In this document: in pieces, positions 1 to 10,787 of the stretch
Numbering within the stretch: the first letter of the stretch is position 1
Layout: each line of letters begins with the position of its first letter
DNA from: Dunaliella salina
Lineage: Eukaryota > Chlorophyta > Chlorophyceae > Chlamydomonadales > Dunaliellaceae
Assembly: GCA_002284615.2 (NCBI GenBank)
Contig: MU069824.1
Span: 125,851-136,637 of the forward strand
Length of the DNA: 10,787 nt
Direction: 5' to 3'
Notes under the pieces: generated by a model
Told to the model about the DNA's origin: nothing
Seen by the model: the letters and a program-made list of their open reading frames with translations, nothing else
Database searches by the model: none
Position numbers and translations under genes: made by a program

Positions 1-1
1 G

Positions 2-262
2 TGCCACAAGGATACCCACAAGTTCTGCTCTGGTGATGGTATTGGTTGGCCCATGGCCATTGGGTCTTATGTGCAGTTGCAAGTGTTGGGAGGGTACAGC
101 AGTGTCACTTCCTGGTTTGTAAACACCTGAACCGGAAAGGGGTGTGGAGTCGTCATCTTTGTGTTTAATCTCACTGCCATCAGTGTAGGTGATTTCCCTC
201 CAGTCCTTGACTTTAGGTGTGAACGTCTTTTTGAAGTTGGCAGGGGTGAATTCTGCCCTTTG
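2..262 (-). pseudogene. RNase H domain of the LINE, cut by window edge
   Basis: An open stretch of 87 codons with the start of a ribonuclease H fold. It shows the first strand ITYTDGSEI with the catalytic Asp at 179-181, then GSGVY, then the helix TRAELVGILVA with the catalytic Glu at 23-25. The remaining catalytic Asp residues would lie left of position 1. In LINEs this domain degrades the RNA of the RNA:DNA hybrid during target-primed reverse transcription. It is in the same frame as the 332-1384 block, separated only by TAA (332-334) and TAG (263-265), which suggests both once belonged to one polyprotein. The D...E spacing and flanking motifs make the family call firm; activity is not expected in this broken copy. 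Confidence 0.85.
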
Positions 263-331
263 CTAAGGGCACTTGTGTAAACAGCTATGGGTGCCAGGGG
301 GGAGTGATTGGAATTTCTGTCTCCCAGTATT

Positions 332-1384
332 TTATGCTAGGTGTTGGTGGGTACGCAGCGGCGTGACAGTATTTGGAGTATCCAAAGTTAGCCAACAAGC
401 TTCTGGTGTAACTCGCTTTACATCTTCCTGGAGGGACTGAAGCCAGTCTTTGTTTGCGGTATCTAGTATTTCTCTGGCGTTAGGGTTCCACACAACGATG
501 AGTTGCATAGAATAGGAAGGTGGAGTAGGATTGGTGATGGTGTCAAACCAGTGTTGTGGTGCCTGGAATCTGATTTTCCTTACAGGGAATTTGGCATGGA
601 CTTTTGCAGTATCTGGGTATTGCTTCAGCCAGCTCATACACGCGTTACAGCTGAAGCCTCTCCAGTGGGGCAGGAGCATGAAGGTGGCAACTGGATCTGT
701 GGATTGGAGGGAGGAGTGCACTGCGTGGCGTAGGAGTTTAAACATCATTTCATCATCGTGTGGAGGATGGCAGAAAGAGAAGCCAGTGTAGCGCACAGAG
801 AGGGCGTCTGTGTGCGCCCCAAAGACCTGGTCTCGGTAGTTTGTGCTGAAATAAGTGTTGTAGGTATTTTTAAAATCGAGAGTGCTGGAAAACCTCTCCG
901 CTGAGACCATGCACCATTTATGCAGGGCTGATCGGATGTGGGAAGGAGTAATAAACTTGTTTGAATTGAAAACCTTTTTGCTCTGGGCCAAAAGATTTTT
1001 CTGTTGAGCCTTTTGGCGTGAGAGCAGACCCATGATTTCAGATGCTGGATCCTGGACAGGGGGCTGAATGGTGGCATGGATGCCTGCTCTTTTGGCTGCT
1101 TCATAGGCTTCGAGCAGGGTTGTGAGCCTTTCTATAGTGAGCATGCCCATGCATTTGCCATTTGCATTGTAGATACAGGTGCATTCAGAGGTGCTTACCT
1201 CTGGCATTGGTGTTGGCATGGCAACCTCATCAGTTGTGTCCGAGTGAAGAGTTTCCTTCATGAGGTCTACACTTCCAATGATATTTTCACATTGCCATGT
1301 TGGTATGATATCTGTCTGGGGATTGGTAGGTTGGAAGTCAAAATGACATTCTTGCGAATTGCGCAGCCGGTGGTTGAAAGCCAT
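332..1384 (-). pseudogene. Methyltransferase-like domain of the LINE (PCIF1-like?)
   Basis: This 350-codon open stretch is the longest intact block of the element. The ATG at 1382-1384 is probably internal, because related sequence continues upstream in other frames. Residues 68-80 contain a Cys-rich patch (CTCIYNANGKC). Residues 185-241 read DQVFGA, then GFSFCHPPHDDEMM (CHPPH at 758-772), a helix, and FMLLPHW. This order (D..FGA, G-F-x3-PP-x-D/E-E-x-M, hydrophobic strand ending P-x-W) resembles PCIF1-type N6-adenine methyltransferases, where the catalytic motif is NPPF. Here it is HPPH, so the catalytic Asn and Phe are not conserved. The assignment is by motif resemblance only. It could instead be an unrelated lineage-specific retroelement domain. 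Confidence 0.45.
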
Positions 1385-1448
1385 GGAGATTCAGATAGGC
1401 TCTGAGCATTGCCTTCGAAGCCTTGGTTGACAAGATTGTCCAGGTCTA

Positions 1449-1824
1449 TTTCAATGGCCAAGGGGTATTTATTTCCTCTGGTCTTTCCTCTGCGTCAAAG
1501 GCTTGCACATGAGCATCCAGGTCTGGATGTATTCGTTCAATTTCTTCTGCTTCCCATTTAGGATGCCACTCTACATAGATCGTTTCACAGTCCTCTGAGG
1601 AGTCGATCCTTTCCTCTTTTTGGGAGTCTGACAGGGATGCGCAGGCAGGGCAGTCCCAGTGCTCTTTTCGTTCGTTCAGTGCCCGGTCATTTTGGGAGCA
1701 TACTTTGACATCTGTGAGACAGTCCCAGTGGTATGTGCGGTGGCAGGCATCACAGGTGGGCTTATTGTCTGGATTTGATTTTCAAAGGTGTTTTTTTGCT
1801 TAATGGACTCCAGCAGAGCTGGCA
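1449..1824 (-). pseudogene. PHD-type zinc finger with acidic tail, part of the LINE
   Basis: Translation gives CQLC (1813-1824), then after about 20 residues and one frameshift CDACHRTYHWDC, then a spacer and HWDCPAC with the last CxxC at 1641-1652. The series C-x2-C ... C-x2-C-x4-H-x2-C ... C-x2-C with Trp two residues before the last pair is the C4-H-C3 pattern of a PHD finger. An acidic stretch (SQKEERIDSSEDCE, EAEEIERIHPDLDAHVQAFD) follows until TAG at 1446-1448, after which related coding sequence goes on in another frame (IDLDNLVNQGFEGNAQSL, about 1380-1450). PHD fingers usually bind histone H3 tails and have been described in ORF1 of some CR1-type LINEs; here the finger lies downstream of the RT. 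The role is inferred. Confidence 0.7.
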
Positions 1825-2205
1825 ACACGGGTCTGCTTTAGTTCTTCTTGGCACATGCTTTGAAGAGGCCAGTTTCAGCCCATTGTTTTGGAAAATGGGC
1901 AAGGCCCATTTTTCAATGGTGACGGGGTGCCATTGTACTTTATTGTTTTTGCTCCTTTTCTTGAGAAGATCTCTTATATTTCCGGAGGTGTTGCCATCCC
2001 AAGATATGTAGGATGACATGGTCAAAGCGGAAGATGGTGTTGCTAGCTTCAACTGCGCTGAATGCATCAGCCGTTAGGCCTAACCCTAACTATTCTGTTC
2101 ATAGTTCCAGAGCCATTGGGGGAAATCAGTGCTTGAAGTATTTGGAGGTGCGGGACAAAGGGTTATAATGGTTTGGGGATCAGGGTCAAAAAGTGTTGTC
2201 GGGGC

Positions 2206-2760
2206 TCAGCTCCCTCTGGACTTTCTACTTCCAATTTGTGGGGTCTGAGAGGGCTCCAGAGATGGAGTCTGTGTGTGGAGTGTCGCAAAGGGTTGATTGG
2301 GTTGTATATTATGTACTTGTGTTTGCGGCTGCTCCGCGTGGGGATTGTTTCTTTTGCGAGTGCGTCTGCCTTGGTATGAGTGCCCTTCCGCGCATGGTTG
2401 ACTGTTTGGAAATGGGCTCTCCTGGCTGCTGGGGGAAGCATTTTCTACTTCCATATCCTCAGCATCAAAAAGGGGGGTTGCTGTAAGCTCCAGAATCAGG
2501 GTGTATGTGTGCATTAGAGGCACATCTCCCACTGTCTGGGCTGGAATTGGGGGGATCAGGGGGAGCATGGCCTGGGTAAAACTTTGACCAGTTCCATCCT
2601 GTTGGTGTACGTCTGTTTTCATCATTTCTGTACATGTTGAATGATTTATGCAGCGTGATTCAGGGGTTTTATTGGGTGAGCTGTCTTGGTTGTGTTTGAT
2701 TGTGCTGATGAGGTCAGGTCTGTTCTCAGTCAGAGTGTGGTGTTTAGGGTATGAGAGAGT
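2206..2760 (-). pseudogene. Low-complexity Pro/Gln/Ser linker of the LINE
   Basis: An open frame rich in Pro, Gln, Ser, Thr and His, with a basic patch GRRTRKRNN in the middle. It joins the RT tail by a frameshift near 2750 and continues in the same frame past TGA (2206-2208) to about 2090. The sequence between there and the zinc finger (1825-2090) is coding-like in more than one frame and too damaged to place. No folded domain is recognisable. It probably served as a flexible hinge between the RT half and the PHD/MTase-like/RNase H half, and the basic patch could be a nuclear-localisation or nucleic-acid-binding segment. That role is inference. Confidence 0.6.
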
Positions 2761-3035
2761 CTATTGAGGGCTACAATATGTTTGGTCTTTATTTTGCAGT
2801 CAAACAGAGATGTGAGTTTGTTCCCACCAATAATATGCGTGAGGTTATTATTCATCAAAGCAGAGAGCCTGTTTATGCCTATTTCCATGAGCGTATAAGT
2901 GCAGTGACAGGCTAAGGTTTTAAGGGTGGGTTGCATTGGCATTGAGAGGACTTTTACTGTGGTAGTGATGCTGGTGAGAAGGTAAGGTGCTCCTTGATAG
3001 GAGACGTCAAGATCGCTTTTGTCGAAGCAGAGGTG
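2730..3035 (-). pseudogene. RT C-terminal extension of the LINE
   Basis: About 100 codons in the same frame as the RT block, separated from it only by TAA at 3036-3038 and ending with TGA at 2730-2732. The translation (HLCFDKSDLDVSYQGAPYLL and onward, with LMEIGINRLSALM and HIIGGNKLTSLFD) looks like the helical tail that follows the thumb in plant and algal LINE polyproteins. No zinc knuckle (CCHC) is visible. It is listed separately because the stop makes it look like an independent ORF, which it almost certainly is not. Confidence 0.6.
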
Positions 3036-4620
3036 TTACCTGACACGGAGCATGTAGGGTAACTGCTTGAGGATGAATTCGGAGGTTTGGTGGGATGGGT
3101 TGATGCTCCTAAGTACATAGTGTCTCAGTTTCTGGATTTGCGATTCAAGTATTGACCTGGTGACCCGGCTGTACCTGCTGGTGTTATTGAGGCTGCTGGT
3201 GAGGGCCGTTGCACACCTTGCATTATATTCTACTGCGGTGGATGTACAACCAAGACCATAATTAGTTTTGTCTTCCCGTAGGATGGCTGTGGCAGTGCTA
3301 TGCCAGAGCTTGTATCTTTCTTTGATAACCTTGAGGATACATTTGTCCCAGCCCGCAAGGTCCTTCTCGGAGCAAGGTGTCACTGGAAAGGCGTATGCAA
3401 TGCTGGGGATGATGGCTGTGCAAATTATATCCAATGTTTGCTTGGGTGTGGCGAAAGAGCATGTGAGGCTTGCCAGCTTTTTGGTAAGCTTTTCCTCCAA
3501 TTTGTTAAGCTGGGATTTCCAGTCTAATGTCATGGTGACTTCAACGCCAAGGTAAGTACATGGGTCTCCGGGGCAAATGAATTGGGCCGGCTTGCCCTGG
3601 ACCAGTATCTTATCTTTAAGTTGACGCCGAGCAAAATCAGCAACGGACGTATTGCCCCTTGTTTGCATTGTTTGTGGGCTAAGAAGGTTGCAAGTCACCT
3701 TTGTTTTTGAACCAGAGATGATGAGGTGGGCCCAATCAGCATAGAGGCTTAATTTCTTGGCTTGAATACGTAGGTTAGCATATGAGCCTGTGAGGCAGAT
3801 GAGGTCATCTGCAAATGCCCCACTGCTGATTTTGTTCTGGATTTTCTGTTCCAAAGTCTGGGGTTTTTGTTAAGGCATTTATATTCATAGCCTTGCCCGC
3901 CAGCGTGGAGCCAGCGCAGCAGAGGCTCCATGTATATGAGGAAGAGGAAGGGGGAGAGGGTGTCTCCTTGGATGGTTCCCCTTTCTATAGGGATGTCTTT
4001 GGAATACTGACCAGTTGCTAGATGGATTCTGGTGTGGGCCCTTTGGTATAAATTCTTAACTGTGTCAATATTGACAGAGTGCCATTAATGGCATCGGTGG
4101 GGAAGCCGAGGTCATACATTATCCAAAGTAGTTTGTCATGGTCTGTTGTGTTGAATGCAGAAGTAAGATCTACAATTAGAGCATAAACACCTTTATTAAA
4201 GAGTTTGGAATCTTCAAAGGTCATGATTAAGTTTTGGAGTTGGTGTATGGTATCTGTGTGTTTATGGAAACCCGCTTGCATAGAGCTCAGGAGGGAGTGG
4301 CTCTCTGCATATTCATAGAGGGTGGTTGTTACTAGGCGTGTTTATAATTTATAGAGGGTGTTGGCCAGGCCAATGGGTTGGTAGGACGTGATGTCCGTTT
4401 CAGGGCCCTTTTCTTTAAAGAAAAGAACGGTATCACTCTTTTTCCAAGCTTTGGGGGTGATCCCTGTTGCCCACATAATGATAAAGAGTTTGTGGATGGA
4501 TTCCTTGCATTCATGCGGCAGGTGTTTGAGCAGCTCATTGGCTATGCCGTCTGGTCCTGTTGTTTGTGAGGGATTGGATGCATTCGTGGAAGGAGCAGCT
4601 GTCTAGGATGGAGTTGTGAA
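3036..4620 (-). pseudogene. Reverse transcriptase domain of the LINE
   Basis: RT motifs appear in canonical order. GPDGIANELLKHLP (from 4557) and TSYQPIGLANTLYKL precede motif A, IVDLTSAFNTTDHDKLL, whose catalytic Asp is at 4168-4170. Then come GTIQGDTLSPFLF (about 3945-3980), the FADD catalytic box (3804-3815, an F-A-D-D variant of YxDD), and YLGVEVTMTLDWK with thumb sequence to 3039. The domain is read in three frames: 4018 to about 4571 with a TAA at 4342-4344, about 3850-4026, and 3036-3854. The first TAA falls where related RTs have a hydrophobic or aromatic residue, so it looks like an ordinary nonsense mutation. The intact enzyme copies element RNA at a nicked target. This copy is dead. 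Confidence 0.97.
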
Positions 4621-4710
4621 GCCATTTCCTTTTCCTGTATCGTTCTCAGCCCTAGTGATGGGAGTTTCAAGGAGGAAGTGGTCCTCGCACTGTCCGTCCG
4701 GACCATGGAT

Positions 4711-5601
4711 CTATCCAGGGGTCACCCTACGGTAGTTGCGCCTAGCTTGGGGTTCAGATGGAAGGTAGGCCCCAGTCTTGATGCTGGGGGCAGCCATGCT
4801 GTCACTGTAAAACTTTTCCACAATACCATCTTTTTTGCATGGGTCTGTTTCTACTTCGCCTGTGTCAGGGTCTGTGAGTACTTGGGCTTGGGGAGGAGCA
4901 GAGGTTTTGCCATTGAAAATTTCCTTGTTGGCAAGGGCAGGGTCTTTTGCAATTTTCTTCTGTGGGCGCCTTTGCGTTCTGATGTGGCACTGGGCGCTAT
5001 AGTCAGAGTCTATTTTGTTGATTTGCTCCTTGAAATTTTCATGCTGGGCTTGGAGGACAGTCTCCAGTGGTGGTAGAGGGGATGAAATGCTGTTTGAGTT
5101 ACGGGCGGAGGATGCTATTTCTGGGTGAGAGAAGCTTTGGACAAAGAGAATGGCCTTATGGAGGTTGGGTTCATGGCTGTGAAGGGCCAGGACCTCAACA
5201 AAGGTGAGGGCCAGATGATTTTGGGGCAATTTGTATTGTACAGCGGACAGATTTGAGATTATTACACAGTGATCTGCGGAGGTTGCTGATCCACCTGATC
5301 CTGAAGTGTTTGAAGGTTGTGGATTTAATTTTGGTGGTGCACACCTGCAGAGCCACCTCGTGGCATTTTTTGACAAGATGATAATTTTGTCCAAAATGTC
5401 CTCAACGGTTTCTCTGGCAGGGAGGCCATTAAGGCGCTTTAAAGGAGCAGGTTTTGTAGCACAAGAGCTCTAGAGCAGACAGGTGGAAGAGAGTAGCTTC
5501 GTGCATACTGTTCAATGCTTCTAAAATGCTCGCATGGGAGGTGTGAGGTGTATAAGAAGGGTCATTGAGGGCACAATGCAGGTTTTCAATATCTGAGGGT
5601 T
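4711..5601 (-). pseudogene. EN-RT linker region of the LINE
   Basis: Two open stretches with a frameshift near 5440. The upstream part continues the endonuclease frame (CVLVQPIKPSDIENLHCALN) directly after the short insertion. The downstream part (about 5440 to TAG at 4711-4713) ends with the motif common just before LINE RT domains, VLTDPDTGEVETDP followed by IVEKFYSDSM. The SGSGGSATSADH segment looks like a linker. Between 4620 and 4710 coding sequence can be traced in more than one frame. It has no enzymatic motif of its own and is annotated because it links the EN and RT blocks and shows that they belong to one element. Confidence 0.8.
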
Positions 5602-5625
5602 TTATGGGCTGCACTAGCACACACT
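5602..5625. repeat. Target-site duplication, copy 1 (24 bp)
   Basis: Twenty-four bases identical to 5763-5786 (core gggctgcactagcacacact). On the minus strand they encode the LINE segment CVLVQPI. Confidence 0.9.
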
Positions 5626-5762
5626 GTAACACTTCTTGAGACATTACATCAGTTTTCTCAATGTTTTTTTAGAGTTGCCTGTGTTTGTGCTCATCAAAGG
5701 AATTCACGCCGAGCAGCCAACCTTATGGCTGAAGGCTTATATCCCATTGTAACCTTGTAACC
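5626..5762. mobile_element. 137-bp insertion within the LINE, with 24-bp target duplication
   Basis: Removing this segment plus one copy of the flanking 24-bp repeat restores the LINE frame exactly: IIGPTLPHQNECVLVQPI on the high-coordinate side continues as KPSDIENLHCALN on the other. The insertion is therefore younger than the LINE coding sequence. One end carries ttgtaacc twice in tandem (5747-5762); the other begins gtaacac. There are no obvious terminal inverted repeats, no poly(A) tail and no ORF. Its half nearest 5762 matches three other places in the window. It could be a SINE-like or other small non-autonomous element; the mechanism cannot be read from one copy. Confidence 0.8.
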
Positions 5763-5786
5763 TTATGGGCTGCACTAGCACACACT
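5763..5786. repeat. Target-site duplication, copy 2 (24 bp)
   Basis: Perfect match to 5602-5625 on the other side of the 137-bp insertion. At 24 bp it is long for a DNA transposon and within the range of some retroposon target duplications. Confidence 0.9.
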
Positions 5787-6614
5787 CGTTTTGATGAGGC
5801 AGAGTAGGCCCTATAATTTTCTTGATTTTGACCCCTAGGACGTTAGTGGGGACATTGGCAGCAAGGGGAATATGATCACTGTGCTTGTAGCCTTGGTCAG
5901 CAGTGTTGCAGCATCTTAGTGAATGAAGATTGGAGCTGTTGGCTTTGATGATGCTGGAGGGCAGTAGTATGCCATCAATGCGGCTGTGTGTGTGGCCCCC
6001 TGAGGTTTGGCAGCGAGGCGCTGTTTCAGACCTGAATATCCAGGGTCTTTAAGTCAAGTGCCAGTCAAGGGGGCAGAGTTGTGTCTCAGAGATGAAGTTG
6101 CGGAAAAGCTTATCTTGCTCGTAGGATTTTCCCCTGGTTCTATCTTGTGGGATTAGCGTAGCATCCATGTCACCCAACAAGATGGGGAGGCAGTGGCAGG
6201 AGTTGAGAAGGCCTTTGAGGGCCGCCTCCATGCGTTTTATTGTTTCCAGGGCTGCTCCCTTGTCGCCTGAGGGCCAGTAGGTTGAGATCAGGAGGATGGG
6301 CTTGCAAGTGGTCTTCAGTTTGGCAGCCACCATCCTTCCCTCAATTTTTTCTTGGAAGAAAACTTGAGTGGCTTGGGTAGTAATGGCGTACTTTGTTTGA
6401 CACATAGGATAGTGCCAGAGTGGTGGTGGGAGCTGTGTCACCAGGCATAGTCGCGCAAAAGTTGGTCAAGCCATTGTGGCGTTTTCAAACCTCCAGTGAT
6501 TATAGTTTCTGTAAAAGAAATTATGTCCGGGTCATGATGGGTGATAAGGTCATACATATCATCCTTACTTTTAAGCTGGGTGATAAGGTCAAATACATCA
6601 TCCTTACTCTTAAG
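5787..6614 (-). pseudogene. APE-type endonuclease domain of the LINE
   Basis: Motifs of the exonuclease-endonuclease-phosphatase fold appear in order: HDPDIISFTET (catalytic Glu of the xTET box, about 6505-6540), LISTYWPSGDKG (about 6270), ILLGDMDATL (the GDFN-like box, about 6180), SRIDGILLPSS (about 5960) and HSDHIPLAA (SDH at 5872-5880). This domain nicks target DNA to prime reverse transcription. The segment 6441-6614 is in one frame. After a frameshift near 6440 the rest is in another, interrupted by TAA at 6049-6051, and runs to the 24-bp repeat at 5786. The GDFN box reads GDMD, an altered core. The N-terminal strand is missing and its place is taken by a 13-residue tandem duplication. 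Confidence 0.9.
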
Positions 6615-6618: not shown

Positions 6619-6653
6619 GCTGCTCAGCTCGGGAGAAAGCTGAGCAGTCAACC
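6614..6653. repeat. Hairpin at the LINE 5' junction
   Basis: Arms 6614-6629 and 6638-6653 are reverse complements at 15 of 16 positions, with an 8-base loop (cgggagaa). The lower arm lies where the recognisable endonuclease frame starts; the upper arm is the first part of a short dispersed repeat. Confidence 0.85.
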
Positions 6654-6690
6654 TTTCTGGCTGAAGGCTCGACCCTGTTGTGAACTTGTT
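6638..6690 (-). repeat. Short dispersed repeat, copy B
   Basis: On the minus strand this reads caagttcacaac ... gagccttcagccagaaagg ... gactgctcagc. It aligns with the end of the 137-bp insertion (copy A, about 5709-5762), sharing agccttcagcca exactly and most surrounding bases. It sits directly upstream of the truncated LINE. Confidence 0.65.
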
Positions 6691-7611: not shown

Positions 7612-10241
7612 CTGTGTGCAGCATGATTTGATTGAACATTGATGGTGGTGATGGTGACGGTGATGATGGTGATGATGCTGATGACAATGCCAATGAATTG
7701 ATGGGTTAAGCCATTAGAACGCTGGAAGTCCTGGGCCTCCAGGTGCATGGACTGAATGACCCAGCGAACCCCACACTGGCTAGTCTTCACTCTCGGAGCA
7801 GCGTGCAGCAACGCCCTTGTACTTTTTTGCACACTTGGAAGTGTACTCATTTGAGATCGCGTCATGAGCTGACTTGCTAGCTTTAGCTCCACGTTTTGGA
7901 ACGATTCCCTTGCTCGGATTCGACTCCACTATTCAATTTCACAAGGTTGGATGAAGTCGGTCGGACAAAGTTGATGATGACAAGCAGAGAAAGTAGGTCT
8001 GCCCTGCATCATCAACTGATACAAGCACTTCCCCTTCATCGCAATCTGTCCCAAAAATGGAAAAAGCGAAGTCTTTGCATGAGGCTGCATTAAGAGAGGG
8101 TTCCTCGACTGGCAAGCTTGCAGGAACCTCACCAAACTCCTCCACCAAAGCCCCCTCATGGGCATGTGTAGCTACTGGCCTTCTTTCATGGTGCTAGCAC
8201 CGTGGAAGGAGGCCAGCAGCGTGTCATGCCATGAGAAAGGTCTTCCTTTTCTCCTTTCTACTCTCCAATTCCGCCTAGACAGGGCAGGCGCCTTTCATCT
8301 GTTCCCGCAATCTGGTGCCCCCCCACCTGGAGGTGAGCACCACAAAAGCTCTTTTCTTCCTTCAGACCCGTCATGTGACCCACCCGACTTTGAAGCGCGC
8401 AATCTGCACTGTCAAGTGGCTTTTCATCACCCACCTTCAGCTTGGACGCTTTGCCCGTCTCCTGCAGCATCTTCAGCGCAGTGCTGCGAGCCTCAGGCAG
8501 GGCCACCAGTTGCTGCGATAAAGGCATATGCACAAATGGGTCAGCAAAAGCATGCAGAACTGAGGGCCACTATTTGCTGCAATAAAGGCATATGCACAAC
8601 TGAGTCAGCAAAGGCACGCAGAAGTGAGGGCCACCAGTTGCTGCAATAAAGGCATATGCAGAACTGAGTCAGTAAGGGCATGCAGAACTGAGGGCCACAG
8701 TTGCTGCAATAAAGGCATATGCACAACTGAGTCAGCAAAGGCAAAAAGAAGTGAGGGCCACCAGTTGCTGCAATAAAGGCATATGCAGAACTGAGTCAGT
8801 AAGGGCATGCAGAACTGAGGGCCACCAGCACCACCGGCAGCAAGGCATGCAGAACTGAGGGCCACCAGTTGCTGCAATAAAGGCATGCAGGACTGAGTCA
8901 GCAGTGTACTCACATTTCTTCTCCCTCACTCTTGATGGGCAGCTTGAGATCGCAGTATTTTGAGACTGTGATGTTCAGCGCATTTCTTGATTGCACTTGA
9001 AGGCATGCAGCATGAGAGCATCGAGACCTGCAAGTCCCTTACGCAACCCGACAACTGCTCACTGCAAGCCACCACACAGGTAACAAGGTTACAAGGCCTC
9101 CAGTCAAAACGACTGACTGCTAGCCTGAAGTCACCACACAGGCCTCCAGCCCAGTTGCTTCCACCTACGAGCGCCCTCCAAGCAATGCCTGTGCTCACCT
9201 TGAAGTCCATCGAGGTGACGTGTGGCATATTCTGCTGCTGCGCTGTCTGCTGCTTCAAGTTCTCTTCCTTGGGGATCACCACGGCCACGAGGAAGTTCTC
9301 AAAGCTGCTGCCATACACCCAAAGCTGCAAGCAGGCACACAAGGGCAAGGTGTAAAATGTTGAACCAGCCATGCTTTGGGAATCGCCAAAGGCATGTGAG
9401 AAGGTCTCGCAGCTGCTGCCACAACCACAGCGGTAAGCAACCATGAGTGTGCGAAAGGTGTACAAGGTTCACAAGAAAAGAGCCACTCAGTCAAAACGCA
9501 TGGCTGCTGGGCTTACCGCGGTAAGCAACCATGAATGTGCGAAAGGTAAGCTCTGCGTGTGCTTTACACATGGATCACCATGCAGGCCAGCTTCATGTGA
9601 GATGATGCGACCTGAACTCATGTCCAACTAATACTTCATCCTTTGTTAATAATACTTCTTTTAAAGTCATGACCCAAACATGACTTACTTCGAATTGTAT
9701 CTGCCCCTCATGACCACAAACACCACCATACACTTGCGCCTACAATCACAACTGAAGGAACCAGGAGGAAGCTCTTCTGCAACACAATCCAGGCCAACAA
9801 AGGAGGAAAAACTGCGTGCGCAAGACACTTCAACCCCCTGTAGCTGTTCATTGCTGTAACCCAGTACAGATATACAATAGAGAAGTGCAAGCATTGCAAG
9901 CCCCAGGCACACTCTTCCTGCAATAACACATTTATTGCCTTGCAAACCTAAACCTCTCTCAATGATGTCTCACAAATGAATGTCGGTGAGACCTTGATTA
10001 TTTAGGTGCAATTTAGAGTTAATACGCAGGTTTGATGTGCAGGAAGACCTCCAGGCAAATCCAGCACCTGATGCACACCTCAAAACAGATTTCCTGAAAC
10101 AAAACCCTTCCTGGATGCGCACATCACAGGCACAGGATCCTTGAAAGAAAGAAAAAAACTCCCGCAAGGTGCTGCTCACCTGGTCCACTATAGGGCACAT
10201 CTTGTATGCATTCTCCACACGCTCCACAGCCACATACTCCC
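7453..10241 (-). CDS. LACS: Long-chain acyl-CoA synthetase, 3' part (4 exons)
   Basis: Joined exons 10241-10180, 9324-9199, 8512-8435 and 7611-7453 encode 140 residues plus TAA: the C-terminal lid domain of a eukaryotic long-chain acyl-CoA synthetase. The enzyme activates fatty acids with ATP and CoA for lipid synthesis or beta-oxidation, usually at ER, plastid or peroxisomal membranes. Hallmarks are EYVAVERVENAYKMCPIVDQ, LWVYGSSFENFLVAVVIPKE, ETGKASKLK-GFEIIKAVHLD and ITPSFKLKRPQLLKKYQ, which hold family-typical order and spacing. Every junction is GT-AG and keeps the frame. The AMP-binding core and the upstream DRKKNIFKLSQ-type motif must lie right of 10787. The C-terminus ends KAEQ without an SKL-type peroxisomal signal. 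LACS versus ACSL subfamily and cell compartment cannot be decided from this part. Confidence 0.93.
7641..7684. repeat. Imperfect GAT/GGT trinucleotide microsatellite
   Basis: About 44 bp built from gatggtggtgatggtgacgg-type triplets, ending gatgatgctgatga. It lies in the last LACS intron, about 30 bp upstream of the acceptor in transcription order. Confidence 0.85.
7725..7772 (-). other. Degenerate copy of the last LACS exon's start
   Basis: On the minus strand this matches the beginning of the last exon (7611 downward) at 32 of 46 aligned bases with one 2-base gap, including the exact block tgcacctgga. The translation GVRWVIQSMHLEAQDF parallels GFEIIKAVHLDTEPF in the matching frame. It may be an old partial duplication or a dead alternative exon. 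Chance similarity is not excluded. Confidence 0.4.
7939..8193 (-). other. Coding-like open stretch inside LACS intron, unrecognised
   Basis: About 84 open codons between TAG (8194-8196) and TGA (7939-7941). There is no ATG start. The translation (LVEEFGEVPASLPVEEPSLN, SIFGTDCDEGEVLVSVDDAG) has protein-like composition but matches no family I recognise. It may be a relic of an inserted gene or transposon, or chance. Confidence 0.25.
8435..8512 (-). CDS. LACS: LACS exon ending GKASKLK (78 bp)
   Basis: Acceptor ttatcgcag ends at 8513 and donor gtgggt starts at 8434. It encodes 26 codons in phase 0, starting QLVALPEARSTALKM and ending ETGKASKLK, the helix before the final strand. The first 13 bases of the exon and the intron end next to it form the first unit of the 64-bp minisatellite at 8500-8904, so several near-identical acceptors lie upstream in transcription order. 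Confidence 0.9.
8500..8904. repeat. 64-bp minisatellite carrying a splice acceptor
   Basis: Head-to-tail units start at 8500, 8564, 8628, 8692 and 8755 (64, 64, 64, 63, 64 bp), followed by a 40-bp degenerate unit (8819) and a partial unit (8859 to about 8904). The 8628 and 8755 units are identical; the 8564 and 8692 units resemble each other, so there is a 127-128 bp higher-order period. On the minus strand each complete unit contains tttattgcag followed by a CAACTGGTGGCCC-like string: the acceptor and first 13 bases of the exon at 8435-8512. The unit at 8500 overlaps the real exon edge. Confidence 0.95.
8513..9198 (-). other. LACS intron (686 bp) with splice-site minisatellite
   Basis: GT-AG intron; the protein joins DFK to QLVALPE with no missing family segment. 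Its 3' part is the minisatellite at 8500-8904. The part from 8905 to 9198 holds one copy of the short dispersed repeat (9079-9125) between imperfect 27-bp direct repeats (9054-9080 and 9116-9142, 21 of 27 identical). Confidence 0.85.
9079..9125 (+). repeat. Short dispersed repeat, copy C
   Basis: It reads ggtaacaaggttacaagg, then cctccagtcaaaacg and actgactgctagcc on the plus strand. It shares acaaggtt-acaa and cagtcaaaacg with copy D and the tail/core order with copies A and B. It is flanked by diverged 27-bp direct repeats. Confidence 0.55.
9199..9324 (-). CDS. LACS: LACS exon with WVYGSSFENFLVAVV motif (126 bp)
   Basis: Acceptor gcttgcag ends at 9325 and donor gtgagc starts at 9198. It encodes 42 codons in phase 0 at both ends, beginning LWVYGSSFENFLVAVVIPKE and ending HVTSMDFK. 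The family has V-W-V-Y-G at the junction; here the first residue is Leu. A Gln-rich run (KQQTAQQQ) falls in the variable region. Confidence 0.93.
9431..9547. repeat. 29-bp direct repeat flanking a 59-bp segment
   Basis: cggtaagcaaccatgagtgt (9431-9450) continues as gcgaaaggt to 9459 and recurs at 9519-9547 with one difference (28 of 29). The 59 bp between (9460-9518) contain dispersed-repeat copy D. Their end gcttaccg abuts the second repeat's cggtaagc to form a perfect 16-bp palindrome at 9511-9526. It fits either an insertion with target duplication or a tandem duplication. Confidence 0.85.
9458..9513 (+). repeat. Short dispersed repeat, copy D
   Basis: Plus-strand tacaaggttcacaag, gagccactcagtcaaaacg and ggctgctggg align with copies B and C in order. 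It lies between the 29-bp direct repeats. Confidence 0.55.
10180..10241 (-). CDS. LACS: LACS exon with GEYVAVE motif (62 bp)
   Basis: Acceptor tttgaacag ends at 10242 and donor gtgagc starts at 10179. Two bases complete a Gly codon begun in the previous exon, then 20 codons give EYVAVERVENAYKMCPIVDQ, ending in phase 0. This segment follows the hinge of the acyl-CoA synthetase fold. The phase means that the unseen upstream exon should end with the first base of the Gly codon. Confidence 0.92.
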
Positions 10242-10787
10242 CTGTTCAAACAGAGGCGTGATTCAGAGAGCTCTCCTCAAAAAGGTGATTACGACAAGAA
10301 GCTGTTGATTCGCGGCATGAACAGCCACAATTCAGCAAGGCATCTTGTGACGCCTACTGTCCACTTGCCAGCCTCCGTCATATTTTGCCACACTGGCAGG
10401 GCCTCTCCCTGACGCCCTGATGATGCATGTGTCCTATTAGGTTCGCCCTGCCTCTTTTCAGGGAGGGTTTAGGTTTTTAGGGAAGGGAAAAGAGGCAGGG
10501 CGAAACTAATAGGACACATGCAACATTTTGCTGGAAAACACCCATGCCTTAAAATCGAACAACCTTCAGGGCTAAACATTAGTGATGGAGGTGAAGATCA
10601 GGCCTGCCATTTTTGTCAGTACAGATCTTCTGTCGAATGGGGGTTCATACAGGTACAACAGCAGGCATCCTTTTGCATAGTGCAAACGTGCTAATCCTGT
10701 TTGTTTTCTTTCTCCTTCTTTCTTCCCACTTCACACATGATTTTGCACGTCCTTTTGTGCGGGCACACGCCAGTGTAAGATCAGCAG
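10242..10787 (-). other. LACS upstream intron, partial (at least 546 bp)
   Basis: Sequence upstream of the GEYVAVE exon in transcription order. The preceding exon should encode a DRKKNIFKLSQ-type motif ending in a split Gly codon; it is not present in either orientation, so the intron extends past the window. It contains the foldback element at 10420-10526; the rest shows nothing I can support. Confidence 0.75.
10420..10526. mobile_element. 107-bp foldback (MITE-like) element with G-rich loop
   Basis: Arms 10420-10458 and 10488-10526 are reverse complements over 39 bp with two mismatches; the central 34 bp have one. The 29-bp loop has four G-runs (ggg-a-ggg ... ttaggg-aa-ggg). No transposase, ORF or clear target duplication is visible. 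The high arm identity suggests a young insertion or selection on the hairpin. A small MITE is the simplest reading; a hairpin-RNA precursor is possible. Confidence 0.8.

What the first reader, a model, noticed from the sequence alone, without database searches (positions are those of the whole stretch)
1..6614. LINE with EN-RT-PHD-methyltransferase-like-RNase H architecture
Seen: collinear minus-strand motifs for APE endonuclease, RT, a C4HC3 finger, a domain with a PP-D-E motif, and RNase H. Known: LINEs often carry EN, RT and sometimes RNase H, and PHD fingers occur in ORF1 of some CR1 elements. A chromatin-reader finger plus a possible methyltransferase fold between RT and RNase H is not an arrangement I know as standard. 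Inferred: the C-terminal half may have targeted or modified chromatin, DNA or RNA during integration.
Basis: partly seen in the sequence, partly recalled or inferred. Interest (0 to 1): 0.8.

Follow-up and report, generated by a model that had tools for sequence, protein, structure and literature searches.

The report
Dual-endonuclease LINE carrying a PCIF1-like domain
A jumping gene present in many copies in a green-algal genome carries two DNA-cutting domains plus a chromatin-reader-type finger and a domain related to an mRNA cap methyltransferase, hinting that it may read or chemically mark chromatin, RNA or new DNA copies when it inserts.

Summary
Window 1-6573 (minus strand) is a broken LINE copy: APE endonuclease, RT, C4HC3 finger, a domain with an HPPHDDE motif, and an RNase H cut by an assembly gap. 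The unknown domain is a relative of the PCIF1/CAPAM adenosine-N6 methyltransferase core (PF12237, E 9.8e-9, over cut-off). It is no artefact: 150 of 150 scored matches in this genome pass the cut-off, two families about 32-38% identical share finger-PCIF1-RNase H, and a contig from another sample reads RT-finger-PCIF1 in one 1624-residue frame. Other copies add an R2-type PD-(D/E)XK endonuclease at the C-end; a related copy has Josephin cysteine-protease domains before APE. That is the domain set of the Dualen/RandI group; the finger plus PCIF1-like insert between RT and RNase H is the part I did not find described. It is under purifying selection like the enzymes (dN/dS 0.34 against 0.75 in neutral simulation). 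The catalytic NPPF motif is consistently changed (HPPH, HPIY, HPPY), so whether it still methylates is open. New variant of a known kind; mechanism inferred.

The parts
1..6573 (-). frame-broken copy of a Dualen/RandI-like LINE, apparently 5'-truncated; 3' side cut by an assembly gap
5787..6465 (-). APE-type endonuclease remnant (two frames, 6465-6049 and 6048-5737)
   Evidence: 74-88% protein identity to L022 pieces; the L022 ORF hits Exo_endo_phos PF03372 E 2.3e-7
4711..5469 (-). spacer between APE and RT, 66-85% identical in L022 and L023
3036..4602 (-). reverse transcriptase in three broken frames; FADD at 3815-3804
   Evidence: RVT_1 E 0.0016 and 0.0018, under cut-off; L044 relative RVT_1 E 1.1e-26
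2163..3035 (-). linker between RT and finger
   Evidence: 51-89% identity in other family A copies
1641..1827 (-). C4HC3 PHD-type finger, split by a frameshift in this copy
   Evidence: the unsplit pattern is in 14 of 105 ORFs scanned
332..1390 (-). PCIF1-like methyltransferase-family domain
   Evidence: PF12237 E 9.8e-9, 35.5 bits, cut-off 31.1; PDB PCIF1 6irv, profile E 7.9e-5
749..769 (-). HPPHDDE, at the place of PCIF1's NPPF
2..262 (-). N-terminal part of RNase H (YTDGS, RAEL), cut by the assembly gap
   Evidence: 83-91% identity to RNase H of family A copies; Pfam RNase_H E 3.5e-15 in L021; no Pfam hit for this piece itself
5602..5786 (.). later short insertion (5626-5762) flanked by a 24-bp direct repeat 5602-5625 / 5763-5786

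Best explanation
The window holds a dead copy of a multi-copy, Dualen/RandI-like non-LTR retrotransposon of a green alga. Put together from several copies, the protein reads APE - RT - linker - PHD-type finger - PCIF1-like - RNase H - zinc knuckle - R2-type RLE, probably with Josephin domains before APE, and the element ends in a CTTTT-repeat tail. Shown: the domains from APE to RLE in order on one strand (L022), shared frames across the joins (L021, L044), presence in a second sample, purifying selection on the PCIF1-like domain. Inferred: during target-primed reverse transcription the finger tethers the RNP to a chosen chromatin state, and the PCIF1-like domain acts on adenine in the element's own RNA (cap-proximal or template) or in the nascent RNA:cDNA hybrid, so that the RNA is better used or the new copy is not silenced. 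I give about 45% that it is a working methyltransferase and about 40% that it has become a non-catalytic nucleic-acid-binding module.
Against: The catalytic Asn of NPPF is His in 19 of 21 rows of A2, Tyr in one, Arg in one, Asn in none; the aromatic is His, Tyr or Gln. No WW domain was listed for the 9 ORFs. The finger is below Pfam cut-offs wherever scanned. Both AlphaFold models are low-confidence (53 and 45), and neither Foldseek search gave E below 0.001. dN/dS pairs are not independent, only open frames of at least 60 aa were used, and the linker also lies below simulation (0.56 against 0.78). L044 stops at 4873 while its match to the domain runs to 4965, so its frame ends inside the last part of the domain, and PF12237 is below cut-off there. 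Josephin was found only in L045, whose contig ends before the finger; 0 of the 20 other copies show it. L022 is the only copy with APE, RT and RLE all matched. No expression or activity data.
Confidence: 0.85

Rival explanations
1. Pseudo-enzyme: the PCIF1-like domain has lost methylation and serves as an RNA-binding module (cap or own-RNA recognition), as METTL14 does beside METTL3 (recalled).
For: N to H and F to H/Y at the catalytic motif, kept across families A, B, L015 and L044; selection keeps the domain.
Against: The motif stays a conserved HP[PI][HY]D block in most rows rather than decaying, which fits altered as well as lost catalysis.
Confidence: 0.4
2. The finger and PCIF1-like part is a host gene or a second element nested between RT and RNase H.
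For: The window copy is frame-broken, so the joins are not visible in it.
Against: Uninterrupted frames cross the joins in L021 (finger to RNase H and RLE) and L044 (RT to PCIF1); same order in two families.
Confidence: 0.02
3. The published Dualen elements of Chlamydomonas already contain the same PCIF1-like region, unrecognised or reported elsewhere, so this is an ordinary Dualen.
For: APE, RLE, RNase H and (in L045) a cysteine-protease fold match Dualen; Kojima and Fujiwara 2005 and Iyer et al. 2016 were not held and could describe it.
Against: None of the names shown for the 68 protein relatives is Chlamydomonas, though many rows have no name and the word filter is strict; the passages seen name APE, RLE and RNase H for Dualen but no methyltransferase.
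Confidence: 0.3

Closest known systems
Dualen / RandI group of non-LTR retrotransposons (Chlamydomonas reinhardtii)
   Same: APE and RLE in one element, RT, RNase H (passages of PMC3636483, PMC4640811); cysteine protease (recalled from the Kojima and Fujiwara 2005 abstract; here Josephin in one related copy); non-poly(A) repeat tail in green-algal RandI (PMC3747384 passages; here CTTTT repeats).
   Different: A PHD-type finger and a PCIF1-like domain lie between RT and RNase H; no report of this in the passages read.
PCIF1/CAPAM cap-specific adenosine-N6 methyltransferase
   Same: PF12237 core, PDB profile match and fold match.
   Different: HPPH, HPPY or HPIY instead of NPPF; fused within a LINE protein; no WW domain listed.
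CR1-like LINEs with PHD (Kapitonov and Jurka 2003, seen only as a citation)
   Same: LINE-borne PHD-type finger.
   Different: There recalled to be in ORF1; here after RT in the same protein, beside a PCIF1-like domain.
Retrotransposons with DNA methyltransferases: SymbioLINE-Dnmt, DIRS with Dam-like N6A enzymes, KnitGypsy-Dnmt3 (PMC5890265, passages)
   Same: Retroelement carrying a methyltransferase-family domain under purifying selection.
   Different: Those are C5 DNMTs or bacterial Dam-like; in SymbioLINE the DNMT sits in an upstream ORF. Here a relative of an RNA-cap methyltransferase sits in the RT protein.

Membership tests
Dualen/RandI group | APE endonuclease N-terminal to RT | tested here: met
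   L022 ORF PF03372 E 2.3e-7; L045 PF03372 E 2.6e-7
Dualen/RandI group | restriction-like (PD-(D/E)XK) endonuclease C-terminal, in the same element as APE | tested here: met
Dualen/RandI group | RNase H | tested here: met
   PF00075 E 3.5e-15 in L021
Dualen/RandI group | cysteine protease domain (feature recalled) | tested here: inconclusive
   Josephin PF02099 E 2.5e-9, two stretches, in L045, B-like by its linker (56-57% to L021); its contig ends before the finger, and 0 of 20 copies with the PCIF1-like domain show Josephin, as most are truncated
Dualen/RandI group | RT groups with Dualen in a LINE phylogeny | not tested
   no Dualen RT sequence at hand; in the PDB the L044 protein scores 87 bits to three R2 sequences, 53-55 to L1 and similar entries, 44-45 to 8gh6 and 8ibw, which names as R2 (Bombyx)
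PCIF1/CAPAM methyltransferase | PF12237 core above curated cut-off | tested here: met
   (35.5 vs 31.1 bits); L044 is below it (25.8 bits)
PCIF1/CAPAM methyltransferase | catalytic NPPF motif | tested here: not met
   HPPH, HPPY, HPIY; Asn in 0 of 21 rows
PCIF1/CAPAM methyltransferase | WW domain | tested here: not met
   no WW family among Pfam rows up to E 0.1 for the 9 ORFs
PCIF1/CAPAM methyltransferase | m6Am activity on capped RNA | not testable with these tools
   -
PHD finger | C4HC3 spacing with W before the last Cys pair | tested here: met
   14 of 105 ORFs, L044 included
PHD finger | Pfam PHD above cut-off | tested here: not met
   window E 0.18; family B gives zf-RING_15, best E 9.2e-6, also under its cut-off

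The most novel reading that the evidence does not exclude
A LINE that brings its own adenine-N6 writer and a chromatin reader: the PCIF1-like domain methylates adenine in the element's RNA or in the newborn RNA:cDNA hybrid, and the PHD-type finger places insertions in permissive chromatin, so the new copy starts life with an activating mark. The HPP[HY] motif would be a new catalytic variant of the N6-adenine class.
Probability: 0.25. Interest if true: 0.85.

Novelty: new variant of a known kind. Interest (0 to 1): 0.62.

Why it matters
PCIF1 is known (recalled) as a single-purpose cellular cap enzyme. A selected relative fused into the working protein of an abundant LINE gives a natural test of whether retroelements write or read adenine methylation; the passages I saw report only cytosine DNMTs and Dam-like enzymes in retrotransposons (PMC5890265, PMC6338049). 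6mA is reported to go with permissive chromatin across unicellular eukaryotes including green algae (PMC12695648, title and passages), so an element that placed such a mark could evade silencing. It would also extend the dual-endonuclease LINEs, whose position is read as evidence that APE replaced RLE (PMC4640811, passages).

Tried and rejected
Nested gene or element between RT and RNase H: rejected. Chance domain hit: rejected. Ordinary L1-type LINE with RNase H: rejected because of the RLE. Viral contigs: 14 pattern matches, none a relative. GTDB contigs: 1 relative among 25 pattern matches, L044, filed under a Clostridiales MAG, which I take to be mis-binned. A region search with a 1084-aa ORF found none of 4378 candidates at E 0.001; it admits only proteins of 0.55-1.75 times that length, and the relatives are shorter. 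RLE by sequence profile: nothing in PDB. Papers: the searches with PCIF1 as a term listed no title on PCIF1 in a retroelement; the lists of 10, 65 and 92 were capped (20 of 28, 20 of 2309, 15 of 347), the library is open-licence only, and two key papers were not held. In one search, PMC7824862 (jumbo phages) and PMC8303831 (ERV-K integrase interactors) hold the word PCIF1 once; I saw only the listing. Searches on related terms showed none either among the rows listed. Species: the PsaD exon best matches photosystem I entries, of which 6qph, 6sl5 and 6rhz are recalled as Dunaliella salina; the top rows 9vfj, 9mgw and 9mgz I could not name, so a green alga is likely and the genus open. Many protein relatives are labelled Pelagomonas calceolata in EukProt; I cannot tell whether that label is right. 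MMETSP1126 gave no paper. Host gene: no Pfam hit, nothing relevant.
Full report
What the window is. The window lies at G000:C389:125851-136637 in an assembly of 284,922,659 bases and 1,403 contigs. On its minus strand, positions 6573 to 1 are a LINE copy. Its homology to L022, the one fetched copy that matches there, ends at 6573, while L022's APE-bearing frame runs on; position 1 abuts an assembly gap. Its frames are broken in many places. It lies next to, and in the same orientation as, a host gene whose last exon (7713-7456) matches the end of carboxylic acid reductase adenylation domains at E 4.5e-4; I read it as an acyl-CoA synthetase-like gene, but Pfam found nothing in the four pieces tested.

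Copies. In G000, 150 of 150 scored PF12237 matches pass the cut-off, from 881 candidates. I fetched 20 copies, most of them around long open frames. The PCIF1-like domain is followed on the same strand by RNase H in 20 of 20 and by the RLE in 19 of 20; the finger precedes it in 14, RT in 7, APE in 2, Josephin in 0 (for L036 the APE match is weak, E 4.1e-7, and no RT is matched between). The fall towards the 5' side is what LINE truncation gives, and the 20 were chosen by this domain. L022 shows APE to RLE on one strand over about 8 kb. Two families are clear: A (window, L022, L023, L030, L034, L040 and others) and B (L021, L024, L025, L037 and others), about 32-38% identical in finger and PCIF1-like domain; L015 is a further branch. 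Of the 29 RT copies found with L044 as query, 20 have a finger/PCIF1 match on the same contig and strand and one more (C332); 8 are undecided, since only 29 of 7585 and 64 of 7343 candidates were scored, and such lists favour copies with long matches. One of the 8 ends at a contig end; in C765 the nearest match is 8.4 kb downstream and was not counted.

Outside this genome. Thirteen proteins and, with a profile, 68 match; many come from EukProt entries labelled Pelagomonas calceolata, others from MMETSP, JGI, ENA and NCBI. P0009 joins a PCIF1-like stretch to RNase H (PF00075). L044, a 5,085-base contig filed under a Clostridiales MAG, reads 1,624 residues without a stop: RVT_1 E 1.1e-26, then the C4HC3 finger, then PF12237 at E 9.4e-6 (below cut-off) with motif HPIY. 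Its frame stops at 4873 although the match to the domain runs to 4965, so the last part of the domain is out of frame or cut there.

Selection. Pairwise dN/dS (Nei-Gojobori, pairs with dS 0.05-0.7) has medians of 0.34 for the PCIF1-like domain (187 pairs), 0.35 RNase H (163), 0.37 RLE (38), 0.41 RT (7), 0.50 for the finger region (70) and 0.56 for the linker (28); simulated neutral change with the same substitution types gives 0.68-0.78. Pairs below simulation: 185 of 187, 157 of 163, 37 of 38, 7 of 7, 61 of 70 and 25 of 28. The domain is kept as strictly as the enzymes, the finger region less so. The pairs are not independent, and only open frames were used.

How it may work. From the anatomy, target-primed reverse transcription by a protein that carries two endonucleases is the base. 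A PHD-type finger directly before the PCIF1-like domain, both between RT and RNase H, puts them where RNA:cDNA hybrid and target chromatin meet. I infer tethering by the finger and adenine-directed binding or methylation by the PCIF1-like domain. Nothing here shows activity.

What is known. Passages of PMC3636483, PMC4640811 and PMC3747384 describe Dualen/RandI with APE, RLE, RNase H or repeat tails; passages of PMC5890265 and PMC6338049 (of the latter also the first of four parts) describe cytosine and Dam-like methyltransferases in retrotransposons. The listings showed no paper on PCIF1 in a retroelement, but three of these lists were capped and Kojima and Fujiwara 2005 and Iyer et al. 2016 were not available, so priority is uncertain.

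Changes after re-checking. The protease feature was moved from met to inconclusive and my confidence lowered from 0.86 to 0.85 for that reason.

Noticed in passing
window 5602-5786: A 137-bp insertion inside the LINE flanked by a perfect 24-bp direct repeat, like a SINE target-site duplication; parts of it recur in L028, L030 and L038.
   Followed up: partly
window 6632-6669: A short stretch at the LINE's 5' border matches L022, L028 and L030; in L028 it falls in the same place that the 5626-5762 insertion matches, so it may be another copy of that short repeat.
   Followed up: no
window 8500-8900: Tandem-like repeats, read by eye, between presumed exons of the host acyl-CoA synthetase-like gene.
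   Followed up: no
window 10423-10521: Near-perfect inverted repeat with arms of about 30 bases, read by eye.
   Followed up: no
L045:3-2828: Two Josephin-like stretches before APE; Josephin is a deubiquitinase fold (recalled), so such an element may also edit ubiquitin.
   Followed up: partly
L034:4712-5668: A different RT (YADD) of another retroelement lies close by on the other strand.
   Followed up: no
L044: LINE contig filed in a bacterial MAG (PUOC01000032.1): likely contamination of the reference genome.
   Followed up: partly
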